24,447 nt of DNA from a virus. Positions within the stretch are counted from its first letter, which is position 1. Every line of letters begins with the position of its first letter. The position numbers and the translations under genes were made by a program. Below, piece by piece: positions 1,540 through 22,970 of the stretch. The notes beneath the pieces are model-generated. The model searched no databases. It saw nothing but the letters and a program-made list of their open reading frames with translations, and was not told the origin of the DNA. The DNA lies in IMG/VR virus record IMGVR_UViG_3300046559_000408, positions 1 through 24,447 of that record. One strand, 5' to 3'.

Positions 1540-2469
1540 ATGCCTGGTTTGTTCATCTGCGCGCTCGTAGTGGGCGCGTTCTTCTTCATCGCGCTCTTCA
1601 TCGGCGGCGTCTGCACAGTCGTGGCCAAGAGCGATTCCCCCGACAGTAACGGCGCAACGGGCGGCGCGGTCGGGGCGTTCATCGTGGCGGCAATCCTCGG
1701 AATCCTCGGCGGCAGCCTCGTACTCGCCAGCTCGTTCAACTCTGTCGGCACCTACGACATCGGCGTCACCACGTCGTTCGGCAAGGTGCTCGGCTACGTC
1801 AGCCCCGGTGCGCACTGGATCGCCCCGTGGGAGAACATGGCGCTCATGGACGAGAGCGTCCAGCCGACCGACTACACCCTGACTGTCAGGGTGGCCGGCC
1901 AGCAGACCGCTCAGGCGGAGGTCAAGTTCCGCTGGCAGGTGCAGAAGGGGGCTGTGGACACGCTGTTCCGCCAGTACAAGGGCAACACCTCACAGGTTGA
2001 GACCGCCCTGGTCAAGCCCTCGCTGAACGTCGCCATGAACAGCGTCTACGACGGCTACGACCCGATCCTGCCGCTGTCCACCGGAGCCAAGGCCGGCTCG
2101 CCGGACAACCCGTCCACCGCCCAGTTGTCCCAGCGGGTACAGGACGCGCTCAGCGCGCGGATCGGGCAGTACGTCACGGTGGACACGCTCGTCGTTGAGC
2201 CGCTTCAGTACGACCAGACGGTCACCGACCGGATCAACTCCGTGCTCGCCCAGACGGCGCAGACCGACAAGGCCAAGGAAGCCGTGAAGACGGCTCAGCA
2301 GCAGGCCGACGCCAACGCCATCATCCAGAAGAGCATCTCCAAGAACCCGCTCGTGCTCGCTCAGCAGTGCTTCAACGGGCTAGCTGACGGCCAGATCCAG
2401 AACCAGCCGGGCTTCTCCTGCTGGCCGGGGTCCAGCAGCGGCGTCGTCATCCCGTCCGCCGGCAAGTAA
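1540..2469 (+). CDS. SPFH/band-7 (prohibitin-like) membrane protein
   Basis: The N-terminus carries two hydrophobic segments (about residues 2-28 and 44-68). They are followed by a band-7/SPFH-type region starting SVGTYDIGVTTSFGKVLGYV and continuing through TLTVRVAGQQTAQAEVKFRWQV. A C-terminal alanine- and glutamine-rich helix (about 235-270, TAQTDKAKEAVKTAQQQAD) is typical of the coiled-coil that lets these proteins form rings on membranes. SPFH proteins scaffold membrane domains; phage copies are known but their roles are unclear. The ATG follows GGGAAGGCAGGCAC, a good Shine-Dalgarno. Length 309 aa. It sits in the accessory operon with other membrane proteins. Confidence 0.88.
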   Translation: MPGLFICALVVGAFFFIALFIGGVCTVVAKSDSPDSNGATGGAVGAFIVAAILGILGGSLVLASSFNSVGTYDIGVTTSFGKVLGYVSPGAHWIAPWENMALMDESVQPTDYTLTVRVAGQQTAQAEVKFRWQVQKGAVDTLFRQYKGNTSQVETALVKPSLNVAMNSVYDGYDPILPLSTGAKAGSPDNPSTAQLSQRVQDALSARIGQYVTVDTLVVEPLQYDQTVTDRINSVLAQTAQTDKAKEAVKTAQQQADANAIIQKSISKNPLVLAQQCFNGLADGQIQNQPGFSCWPGSSSGVVIPSAGK

Positions 2470-4394: not shown

Positions 4395-5717
4395 TTAGGC
4401 CGCGTTGCCCACGAAGTACTTCAGGCCGGTCGCGTCCAGGACGTTTCCGTCTCCACGGATCACAGCCCGGAAGCTGATCACGTCGGAGTCGAACTTGAAG
4501 TCGTCCGACCGCTCGAACCTCAGGCCGCCGACCAGGCGAACGGCCATCTGGCTGAAGTCGCCGAACACCAGCGACTTAGCGGACGGGGCCACCGCCGGTA
4601 CGTAGGGGTCGCAGATCAGCGGCTTTCCGAGCAGGAGGTCAGGGGCACCCAGGACCGTGGACGGCTCCCAGAGGGCGCGCCCGTTCTTGTCCACGAGCTT
4701 CCTGAACCCGCCGATAGTCTTATCGGCGGCCAACCAATAGCAGCTCTTGGACTGCCGGTAAGCCGAGATGATGGAGTACTCCATGTCGATGAGGTCGTTG
4801 TAGACCGCACCGCCAGCAATCTGGCCGGCTGCGAGCGCCGATGCAGACGGGGCACCCGTGGTGCCTGCGGAGATGGACGGGATCAAGCCGCCCGTGATTC
4901 CGTTGCCGCCGAGTACCAGCGCGGAGCCGAAGGCGTTGCCGATGGCGCGGCCAGCCGACATTGCGAGGTAACCCAGGAGGTCAACTGCCTTGTCATCGAT
5001 GAGCTCGCGGCTCAGGTACACGAGGTGCCCGAACTTCTGAGCGTTCAGCTGCTTCTGGCTCAGCGACGGCTCGGAGGTCGGCAGGACGCCGGCCTGGGCA
5101 GCCGTTGCGGCGGTCACGTGGGCAGTTGCCACGGGGACGTTGATCTGCTCACCGCCGGTGGTCTTCCAGACGGTGGGGCCGGTCTGGAGGATTCCGGATA
5201 CCTCGATCAGGTACGCGATGAGGCGGTTGTAGAAGTCCACGGGCACGACGGACGAGCCCTGGGTGTTGGAGGCGGAGCCGCCGGTACCGAGGGTACGGAG
5301 GAGAACTTCGTCAGGCACGGCTGCCTGGGCGCGCATCCGGTATGCCTGCGCACGGAAGTACTCGCCGTCGATCACGCCGGCGGAACGCCGCTCAATGTCC
5401 ACGCGCTTGACGTACGGGTCACCTTCGATGAACTTGCGGAGCTGCTCATCGAACTCGGGGTCGCGGGACGCCACGGCGCGCTCAGCGGCCTTGCCGGACA
5501 TCTCGTTGTACGCCTCGTCAGCCTGACGGGAGCGCTTCTCGGCTTCCACCACGGTCTTCATCCGGGTGTCAACGGTATCGAGCTCTTCCATGATGGCGTC
5601 GATGCGCTGGGTGTCCTCCGCAGAGCGGTTCTCGCTGTTCAGGAGGCCCTTAGCCTCGTGCCACAGCTTCTGCCGGTCATCGCGGAGCCTGGTTGCAAGT
5701 CCCATGTCCTCGGACAT
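4395..5717 (-). CDS. Major capsid protein, HK97 fold
   Basis: 440 residues with the architecture of the HK97 gp5 family. An N-terminal charged coiled-coil scaffold-like domain (about residues 5-100) would be removed by the protease. The capsid domain then includes VPVDFYNRLIAYLIEVSGIL, an INVPVATAHVTA strand region, SLSQKQLNAQKFGHLVYLS (E-loop/P-domain region), RAIGNAFGSALVLGGNG and the typical end KFDSDVISFRAVIRGDG. The ATG at 5717 is preceded by AGGAGAG. ATG 5705 is an alternative. It forms the icosahedral shell. Neighbours are the protease upstream and the connector-like protein downstream, the standard order. Confidence 0.95.
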   Translation of the reverse strand: MSEDMGLATRLRDDRQKLWHEAKGLLNSENRSAEDTQRIDAIMEELDTVDTRMKTVVEAEKRSRQADEAYNEMSGKAAERAVASRDPEFDEQLRKFIEGDPYVKRVDIERRSAGVIDGEYFRAQAYRMRAQAAVPDEVLLRTLGTGGSASNTQGSSVVPVDFYNRLIAYLIEVSGILQTGPTVWKTTGGEQINVPVATAHVTAATAAQAGVLPTSEPSLSQKQLNAQKFGHLVYLSRELIDDKAVDLLGYLAMSAGRAIGNAFGSALVLGGNGITGGLIPSISAGTTGAPSASALAAGQIAGGAVYNDLIDMEYSIISAYRQSKSCYWLAADKTIGGFRKLVDKNGRALWEPSTVLGAPDLLLGKPLICDPYVPAVAPSAKSLVFGDFSQMAVRLVGGLRFERSDDFKFDSDVISFRAVIRGDGNVLDATGLKYFVGNAA

Positions 5718-19355: not shown

Positions 19356-19356
19356 G

Positions 19357-19427
19357 TGCCCCACCGACGTACCGACCGCCGTTCCGCCGGGTAAAAGCCG
19401 GCTGCATCACCTTAATGCTTGCAGGGC
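19357..19427 (-). tRNA. tRNA-Lys(TTT) with non-canonical T-loop
   Basis: Acceptor GCCCTGC/GTGGGGC pairs 7/7, D-arm GCAT..ATGC with TAAGGTG loop, and anticodon stem GCCGG/CCGGC around CTTTTAC. The T-stem is CGGCG/CGTCG, but the T-loop is GTCGGTA, lacking the usual TTC start. A pattern search for TTCRA would miss it. Confidence 0.75.
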
Positions 19428-21493: not shown

Positions 21494-21565
21494 TCAGCTC
21501 CCCGGGAGTTGAACCCGGTTTCTCCTGAATCCCGATCAGGCAGATTACCGTCTTCCTCGAAGCTG
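21494..21565 (-). tRNA. tRNA-Pro(GGG)
   Basis: Acceptor CAGCTTC/GGAGCTG, perfect anticodon stem CCTGA/TCAGG around TCGGGAT (C at position 33), T-arm CCGGG-TTCAACT-CCCGG, and A73. The 5' half is almost identical to that of tRNA-Pro(CGG), so the two are duplicates. Its 5' end abuts the permuted tRNA. Confidence 0.86.
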
Positions 21566-21667
21566 ATACGCGAGCGTGTTCCCTGACATACACTAACCAG
21601 TAGACCGGCTCATGAACCGTTATTGCCTACCAGGCGGGAGTCGAACCCGCGCATTCCCGCTTACACG
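21566..21667 (-). tRNA. Circularly permuted tRNA gene (3' half before 5' half)
   Basis: Along the minus strand the 3' half comes first (21667-21626): loop end GTAA, stem GCGGG, variable AATGC, T-arm GCGGG-TTCGACT-CCCGC, acceptor CTGGTAG, G73. After 22 bases that can form a hairpin comes the 5' half (21603-21566): acceptor CTACTGG, TTA, D-arm GTG..CAGGG..CAC, stem CTCGC, loop start GTAT. The halves complement each other: acceptor 7/7 (two G-U), anticodon stem 5/5 (one G-U), variable loop exactly five. Neither half makes a tRNA with its outer neighbours. The anticodon depends on the join; T33 then TGT then AA is one solution (Thr). Confidence 0.68.
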
Positions 21668-21726
21668 TTGCCTACATTAGGCTCCAGGTACCTGAAGTTG
21701 CGGATTCTAACCGCTTTTCCGTGTCG

Positions 21727-21798: not shown

Positions 21799-21881
21799 AT
21801 GGCCGGGGTTGTGCTGCCAATTTACACTAACGCGAGGTTTTACCCAAGCGGCCGGAATCGAACCGGCAATCTTCCCCCTCG
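21799..21881 (-). tRNA. Second permuted tRNA candidate, possibly degenerate
   Basis: Right after tRNA-Ala the minus strand reads a 3' half: CGA, GGGG(G) stem, variable region, T-arm GCCGG-TTCGATT-CCGGC, acceptor CGCTTGG. After a GTAAAA linker comes a 5' half: CCTCGCG, TTA, D-arm GTG..TTGGCAG..CAC, stem CCCC. The 5' half ends exactly at tRNA-Pro(CGG). Acceptor pairing is 5/7 (two central mismatches) and the anticodon stem is 4 pairs. Position 33 would be G. The layout mirrors the permuted locus at 21566-21667, including the TTA after the acceptor. Confidence 0.48.
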
Positions 21882-22373: not shown

Positions 22374-22970
22374 CTACGGCTTGCTGACGTAGAAATTCCT
22401 GCTGCCCGTCTTCCGCAACGTCGTCCCCGGAATCGTGTAAGCCCTGGTCAGAGCCTGATTCGAGTACAGGAACCTAGCCGGCCCGAAGCTGGGAAGCAAA
22501 GGCCCGAACGCCTCGGCCACGGCCTCGCCGGACAGCTCCCGGTTACTGCTGGACTGCCTCGCGCTCACCGACCAGTGCCTCGTCACGTCAGTTACCGTCA
22601 GGGTATAGAGGCTGCCGCTGCGAGTGACGACGAACTGCATCGTGTCCCCGGAGTGCGGAGGCGACGGCGGGCTGAACTGATGCGCGGGCAGCGGCCACAT
22701 CTCCCACCACGCGGTGTACCCCGAGCCAACCGCGCCCGTGACCCCTGCCTGCTGAATGCCGGGATTCCCCTGGCCGAAGCCGGCCCAGAACGCAACCGCG
22801 TCCCCGTGAGCTCCCGTCAGGTTCGGGACGATGAAGTCAGAGGAGGCCCGCGTGCTCGCATACCCGGAGTAGCCGGCCCAGCCCGAGCTCCCGTAACGCT
22901 GATGCCCTGGTGCTACCGCGCCGATTACAGAAGCTGCCAGCAAGAGCGCGAACGCTAGAAACCTAGTCAC
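22374..22970 (-). CDS. Secreted glutamic peptidase-like protein (peptidase G1/eqolisin family)
   Basis: A 198-aa protein with a signal peptide (MTRFLAFALLLAASVIGAVAPG, cut about residue 20). The mature part follows the eqolisin pattern: WAGYSGYAS, IVPNLTG, FWAGFGQ, GIQQAGV (catalytic Gln), YTAWWEMWP, SGDTMQFVV, LTVTDVTRHWSVS, SGEAVAEAFGP (catalytic Glu), then LPSFGPARFLY. G1 peptidases are acid proteases; bacterial members are secreted. Phage context is unusual. GTG 22970 overlaps the upstream stop by eight bases with GGAGG six bases upstream, so it is coupled to the TerL-like fragment. Confidence 0.82.
   Translation of the reverse strand: MTRFLAFALLLAASVIGAVAPGHQRYGSSGWAGYSGYASTRASSDFIVPNLTGAHGDAVAFWAGFGQGNPGIQQAGVTGAVGSGYTAWWEMWPLPAHQFSPPSPPHSGDTMQFVVTRSGSLYTLTVTDVTRHWSVSARQSSSNRELSGEAVAEAFGPLLPSFGPARFLYSNQALTRAYTIPGTTLRKTGSRNFYVSKP

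What the first reader, a model, noticed from the sequence alone, without database searches (positions are those of the whole stretch)
21566..21667. Circularly permuted tRNA gene in a phage tRNA array
Seen in sequence: a tRNA 3' half (anticodon 3' stem, five-base variable loop, canonical T-arm, acceptor 3' strand) is followed after 22 bases by a tRNA 5' half (acceptor 5' strand, D-arm, anticodon 5' stem). The two pair 7/7 in the acceptor and 5/5 in the anticodon stem. Known: permuted tRNA genes with this order exist in some algae and archaea, where a splicing endonuclease and ligase join the halves. I am not aware of an established case in a phage or bacterium. Inference: the precursor is folded with its ends at the anticodon loop, so a functional tRNA would need cleavage and ligation (for example by RtcB-type ligase), or the RNA works as a nicked or two-piece tRNA. 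The linker itself can form a hairpin.
Basis: partly seen in the sequence, partly recalled or inferred. Interest (0 to 1): 0.9.

Follow-up and report, generated by a model that had tools for sequence, protein, structure and literature searches.

The report
Permuted tRNA-like module in phage array
Between two proline tRNA genes of a soil phage lies an RNA built like a tRNA with its two halves swapped; it most resembles the tRNA-mimicking part of bacterial Y RNAs, without the part that binds Ro protein, and is unlikely to be a working tRNA gene.

Summary
A tRNA 3' half is followed, after a 23-nt linker, by a 5' half. They pair 7/7 and 5/5, a match seen in 5 of 110,702 unrelated tRNA half-pairs. 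A folds alone into a circularly permuted cloverleaf whose "acceptor" is a 9-bp stem, a one-sided 5-nt bulge and a 5-bp hairpin. Similar closed units occur in the same part of distant phage arrays (L038, L007), and the window probably holds two more (B, #0).

A permuted-tRNA-gene reading is disfavoured. Joined loops have purine-32 plus A34 (0 of 346 ordinary tRNAs in these arrays). N73 and N74 are paired (3 of 347 ordinary tRNAs). Spacers give loops of about 4 to 13 nt.

The same permuted plan is known: bacterial YrlA Y RNAs. I found unannotated YrlA-like RNAs in Mycobacterium, Streptomyces, Microbacterium, Gordonia and Vibrio phages, most just upstream of a Ro gene. The window unit lacks the Ro-binding motif and any detected Ro gene, so I do not file it as a Y RNA. 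Best reading: a handle-less, YrlA-like, non-decoding tRNA mimic released when its tRNA neighbours are processed (0.6). Rivals: decayed remnant (0.25), true permuted tRNA (0.07).

The parts
21570..21660 (-). Element A: closed, circularly permuted tRNA-like module (AC3', variable, T-arm, extended acceptor hairpin, D-arm, AC5')
   Evidence: sequence; finder score 31.6, shuffles none at 27 or more; MFE equals this fold
21597..21633 (-). Acceptor-like arm of A: CTGGTAGGC/GTCTACTGG 9 bp, one-sided bulge AATAA, hairpin CGGTT-CATG-AGCCG
   Evidence: MFE fold; N73:N-1 plus N74:N-2 both pairable in only 3 of 347 ordinary tRNAs
21566..21569 (-). Tail GTAT between A and the first base of tRNA-Pro(ggg)
   Evidence: sequence; tRNA-Pro limits by Infernal
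21663..21724 (-). Unit #0: second, weaker permuted tRNA-like unit directly upstream of A (ACACG, T-arm-like GCGG-TTAGAAT-CCGC, CTTCAG-GTAC-CTGGAG capped hairpin, D-arm-like hairpin, CGTGT)
   Evidence: fold of the 161-nt interval; read by eye
21805..21878 (-). Unit B: third, imperfect permuted unit between tRNA-Ala and tRNA-Pro(cgg); acceptor 5/7, AC stem 4 bp
   Evidence: relaxed finder; its fold is its MFE; YrlA model 15.1 bits at G002:2579-2637, which maps to 21869-21811
21494..21565 (-). tRNA-Pro(ggg), missed by ARAGORN, directly downstream of A
   Evidence: RF00005, 40.8 bits
21727..21798 (-). tRNA-Pro(cgg), upstream of #0 and A
   Evidence: ARAGORN, RF00005 41.2 bits
18063..22160 (-). 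Phage tRNA array that holds the units
   Evidence: 27 tRNAs by ARAGORN, 20 by Rfam at gathering score, further ones by eye

Best explanation
Element A is a non-decoding tRNA mimic: a closed, circularly permuted, L-shaped RNA module of the same plan as the effector domain of YrlA-type Y RNAs, but without the Ro-binding stem. It is probably co-transcribed with the tRNA array. RNase P cutting at tRNA-Pro(ggg), and processing of the units upstream, would free a roughly 95-nt RNA whose ends lie where an anticodon loop would be and whose acceptor end is capped by a bent hairpin, so it cannot be charged or decode. Its likely role is to occupy tRNA-binding proteins (tRNA-modifying, tRNA-degrading or tRNA-cleaving enzymes), as YrlA's tRNA-like domain is thought to do. 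Shown: structure, recurrence in relatives, absence of the Ro motif, atypical joined loop. Inferred: transcription, release, kinship with Y RNAs, role.
For: Intact permuted cloverleaf, equal to its MFE. Same architecture (8-9 bp, bulge of about 5 nt on the 5' strand, upper hairpin) in A and L038 without sequence similarity, roughly in L007#1, and in Y RNAs of Sebata and Tonenili next to Ro genes (6 bp, GUUA bulge, hairpin). Rfam YrlA consensus has the same order: T-arm, capped hairpin, D-arm inside a closing stem. Same or neighbouring array slot in relatives: L038, L041, L042, L047; in L033, L036, L040 the unit in that slot has a long two-part closing stem (GUGCUCA/UGAGCGC, AUGCUU/GAGCGU, GUACUC/GAGUGC), and L033's phage encodes Ro. 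Y RNAs do sit inside phage tRNA arrays (Myrna, Annadreamy). YrlA as a circularly permuted superposition with tRNA is published (PMC11472068).
Against: No Ro-binding motif in the window's array, no Ro in the 38-kb contig, no Rfam YrlA hit on A even at E of 10. YrlA model scores do not separate such units from ordinary tRNA-tRNA junctions (up to 35.6 bits). A's fold energy is not unusual (z -0.36). No close homologue with substitutions exists to show selection on A itself. Kinship with Y RNAs rests on plan and position, not on sequence.
Confidence: 0.6

Rival explanations
1. A is a decaying remnant: a former Y RNA or former tRNA halves left in the array, with pairing inherited and no present function.
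For: Neighbouring units B and #0 are imperfect (B acceptor 5/7; #0 short D-arm). L007 holds a unit without an acceptor (5063-5110). Positional counterparts with a full stem exist (L033, L036, L040), so A could have lost its handle. Halves from two copies of one isotype can pair by descent (28 of 6,604 same-isotype pairs reach 7/7 plus 5/5).
Against: All helices of A and L038 are intact, and their acceptor arms share a bulge-and-hairpin plan that decay would not build. A's two halves best match different isotypes (5' half Phe; 3' half Met and Leu), so simple duplication of one array tRNA is not seen.
Confidence: 0.25
2. A is a true circularly permuted tRNA gene: neighbour processing frees its ends in the anticodon loop, a ligase joins them, RNase P and 3' processing remove the linker, and a working tRNA results.
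For: 7/7 and 5/5 pairing, normal T-arm and D-arm. In L038 the flanks add up to exactly 7 nt (AUAACGA) and ARAGORN calls tRNA-Val(aac) on the circle. U33 is present in both joined loops. L007's phage encodes RtcB about 3 kb from its array.
Against: Joined loops AUAACGA and GUAUUAA have purine-32 and A34: 0 of 346 ordinary tRNAs. N73:N-1 and N74:N-2 are paired in A and L007#1, against 3 of 347 ordinary tRNAs, a pairing reported to inhibit RNase P complex formation (PMC9433436 abstract). Flanks give about 4 nt for #0, 6-7 for A, 9 for B, 10 and 13 in L007. No RtcB in the window's 38-kb contig or in L038's record; no ligase domain among the ORFs scanned. RtcB needs 3'-phosphate or cyclic phosphate plus 5'-OH ends, not RNase P ends (established enzymology).
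Confidence: 0.07
3. A is an ordinary Y RNA whose Ro-binding stem is unrecognisable or supplied by flanking sequence.
For: Same permuted plan; Y RNAs occur in phage tRNA arrays.
Against: A is 2 nt from #0 and 4 nt from tRNA-Pro, leaving no room for a stem; motif GGNCGR..GGUUAYC absent; no Ro gene found.
Confidence: 0.08

Closest known systems
YrlA-type bacterial Y RNA (Rfam RF02553; PDB 6CU1)
   Same: Circularly permuted tRNA mimic: T-arm, capped acceptor-like hairpin, D-arm, closing stem; found in phage tRNA arrays and next to Ro genes.
   Different: No Ro-binding stem or motif, no Ro gene found, a clean 5-bp anticodon-like closing stem, a longer bent cap, packed between tRNA genes with 2-7 nt spacers.
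Circularly permuted tRNA genes of algae and one archaeon (review PMC3978253)
   Same: Gene order 3' half, linker, 5' half; both stems pair fully.
   Different: Joined loop is not a normal anticodon loop; N73 and N74 are paired; no splicing endonuclease is expected in a bacterium or phage.
Two-piece (permuted) tmRNA
   Same: T-arm and acceptor 3' strand precede the acceptor 5' strand.
   Different: A has a full D-stem and no tag region; the tmRNA model matches only 18 nt of the T-arm.

Membership tests
Circularly permuted tRNA gene | 3' half precedes 5' half and they pair in acceptor and anticodon stems | tested here: met
   7/7 and 5/5
Circularly permuted tRNA gene | Joined product has a canonical 7-nt anticodon loop | tested here: not met
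   GUAUUAA only if a base is borrowed from #0; purine-32 with A34 is 0 of 346 in ordinary tRNAs
Circularly permuted tRNA gene | Acceptor ends free for RNase P and 3' processing | tested here: not met
   N73:N-1 and N74:N-2 paired; 3 of 347 ordinary tRNAs; pairing effect from PMC9433436 abstract
Circularly permuted tRNA gene | Ends joined through a circular RNA by endonuclease and ligase | not testable with these tools
   No RNA data; no RtcB in the 38-kb contig, which is a fragment
YrlA Y RNA | tRNA-mimic domain of permuted order | tested here: met
   MFE fold compared with the RF02553 alignment
YrlA Y RNA | Ro-binding stem with conserved motif | tested here: not met
   Motif absent from the window array, 5 copies in the Annadreamy array and 4 in Myrna; spacers of 2 and 4 nt leave no room
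YrlA Y RNA | Rfam RF02553 score above threshold (69 bits) | tested here: not met
   No hit on A at E of 10; but Ro-linked phage Y RNAs also score only 26.7-59.3 bits
YrlA Y RNA | Ro (TROVE) gene in the same genome | tested here: inconclusive
   None in the 38-kb contig, which is incomplete; none in L007's 181-kb record

The most novel reading that the evidence does not exclude
Phages carry true circularly permuted tRNA genes whose ends are made by the processing of neighbouring tRNAs and which are joined by a phage or host RNA ligase into working tRNAs, without any splicing endonuclease.
Probability: 0.06. Interest if true: 0.92.

Novelty: new variant of a known kind. Interest (0 to 1): 0.48.

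Why it matters
If right, phage tRNA arrays make, besides tRNAs, anticodon-less tRNA mimics that could soak up tRNA-handling enzymes, including host nucleases that attack tRNAs during infection. It would also show the tRNA-mimic half of a Y RNA separated from its Ro-binding half. Independently, YrlA-like RNAs in phage arrays are largely unannotated or labelled as tRNAs, which affects tRNA counts in phage genomes.

Tried and rejected
Circular-mode ARAGORN as proof: rejected after the half-swapping control showed 10% false positives. Permuted intron-exon ribozyme for the Streptomyces and Mycobacterium phage units: dropped once their flanking helices proved to be Y RNA Ro-binding stems and Ro genes lay downstream. 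Permuted tmRNA: only an 18-nt T-arm match. Using the YrlA model to classify A: ordinary tRNA-Ala pairs score as high. Covariation for A itself: no close relative with changes was found; a looser tRNA-Pro pattern brought 82 contigs but only one new contig with three or more tRNAs. Literature: no permuted tRNA gene in a phage found in the held library; the primary YrlA paper (PMC4201824) is not held.

Full report
What is there. The window is a 24-kb IMG/VR virus record with an HK97-type capsid, prohead protease and portal by Pfam and a large-terminase gene by tblastn, plus a minus-strand tRNA array. The same sequence lies in a 38-kb contig. The reported element is real and lies on the minus strand: 3' half 21660-21626, 5' half 21603-21570, between unit #0 and tRNA-Pro(ggg) (21565-21494, missed by ARAGORN, 40.8 bits in Rfam).

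Is it more than chance? Halves taken from different tRNA isotypes in 13 phage arrays pair 7/7 plus 5/5 in 5 of 110,702 combinations. A finder for the whole module gave 9 units at score 27 or more in 182 inter-tRNA gaps and none in 12 shuffled sets; A scores 31.6. A weaker test, circular-mode ARAGORN, found 13 gaps and none in controls, but 10% of swapped halves also pass it, so I do not rely on it.

Relatives. A 181-kb phage contig (L007, about 65% identical in places) has the same tRNA order and holds two tandem permuted units between tRNA-Ala and tRNA-Pro(cgg), the place of the window's imperfect unit B. Four contigs (L038, L041, L042, L047) hold a near-perfect unit between tRNA-Pro(cgg) and tRNA-Pro(tgg): 8-bp acceptor and 5-bp anticodon stem, all Watson-Crick. 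L033, L036 and L040 hold a unit in the same Pro-Pro interval that has a further closing stem with compensating changes at two positions (G-C to A-U; read by eye).

What the plan means. Searching isolate phages with the Myrna unit led to elements upstream of genes annotated as Ro or RNA-binding protein in Sebata, Tonenili, FuzzBuster, BearBQ, SM23 and BONAISHI. Rfam aligns them to YrlA, the bacterial Y RNA (26.7 to 59.3 bits, below the gathering score of 69). Its consensus is a closing stem, T-arm, capped hairpin and D-arm, which is a circularly permuted tRNA. The literature states that the bacterial Y RNA structure 6CU1 superposes on tRNAs with a circular permutation (PMC11472068). Annadreamy's array shows five Ro-motif matches and Myrna's four; the arrays of the window, L007, L038 and L033 show no true match (the single pattern match in the window region lies inside an ordinary tRNA T-arm).

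Why not a permuted tRNA gene. Three tests count against it. First, loops: joining tail and head gives AUAACGA (L038) and GUAUUAA (A, only by borrowing one base from #0); purine-32 with A34 occurs in 0 of 346 ordinary tRNAs here, and A34 only in Arg(ACG). Second, ends: in A and L007#1 N73 pairs with N-1 and N74 with N-2, as in only 3 of 347 ordinary tRNAs; such pairing is reported to inhibit RNase P complex formation (PMC9433436 abstract). Third, spacers: the nucleotides available for a loop are about 4 (#0), 6-7 (A), 7 (L038), 9 (B), 10 and 13 (L007). RtcB is encoded in L007's phage but not in the other records searched.

Why a tRNA mimic. A's minimum-energy fold is the permuted cloverleaf, with a 9-bp arm, a one-sided AAUAA bulge and a 5-bp hairpin. 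L038 has 8 bp, UAAGA and 6 bp; Sebata and Tonenili Y RNAs have 6 bp, GUUA and 4 bp. A structured, bent cap is more natural for a mimic than for a linker to be cut out. The stemmed counterpart occurs in a phage that encodes Ro (G004); the stemless ones are in records without detected Ro. This suggests, without proving, loss of the handle together with Ro; the numbers are small and most records are fragments.

Status of each step. Shown: sequence, pairing, fold, recurrence in relatives, absence of the Ro motif, atypical joined loop, extended acceptor. Inferred: transcription, release by neighbour processing, kinship with Y RNAs, decoy or scaffold role. A's fold energy is ordinary (z -0.36) and there is no covariation for A itself, so a decayed remnant stays a serious rival.

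Noticed in passing
L038:2876-3257 (+) and L047:1235-1616 (-): Class A bacterial RNase P RNA (110 and 113.9 bits, gathering 100) inside a phage tRNA array, overlapping the end of tRNA-Pro(tgg) and what looks like a tRNA-Phe 5' half.
   Followed up: partly
L049:15153-15224 (Myrna gene 166) and L053:198-264 (Microbacterium phage SM23): YrlA-like RNAs are annotated in GenBank as tRNA-Asp and tRNA-Asn; several more Ro-motif units in the Myrna and Annadreamy arrays are unannotated.
   Followed up: partly
L007:367-1554: RtcB RNA ligase gene (395 aa) about 3 kb from a tRNA array that holds permuted units, in a 181-kb phage record without a detected Ro gene.
   Followed up: partly
L007:5063-5110: A T-arm followed directly by a D-arm inside a 5-bp anticodon-like stem, with no acceptor stem at all.
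   Followed up: no
window 22374-22970 (-): Peptidase A4 (glutamic endopeptidase) family gene next to the tRNA array (47.6 bits), unusual for a phage.
   Followed up: no
window 19356-19427 (-): tRNA-Lys(ttt) called by ARAGORN has an odd T-arm (GGTCGGTACGTC) and no Rfam hit at gathering score.
   Followed up: no
window 1540-2469 (+): Band 7/SPFH membrane protein gene upstream of the structural genes.
   Followed up: no
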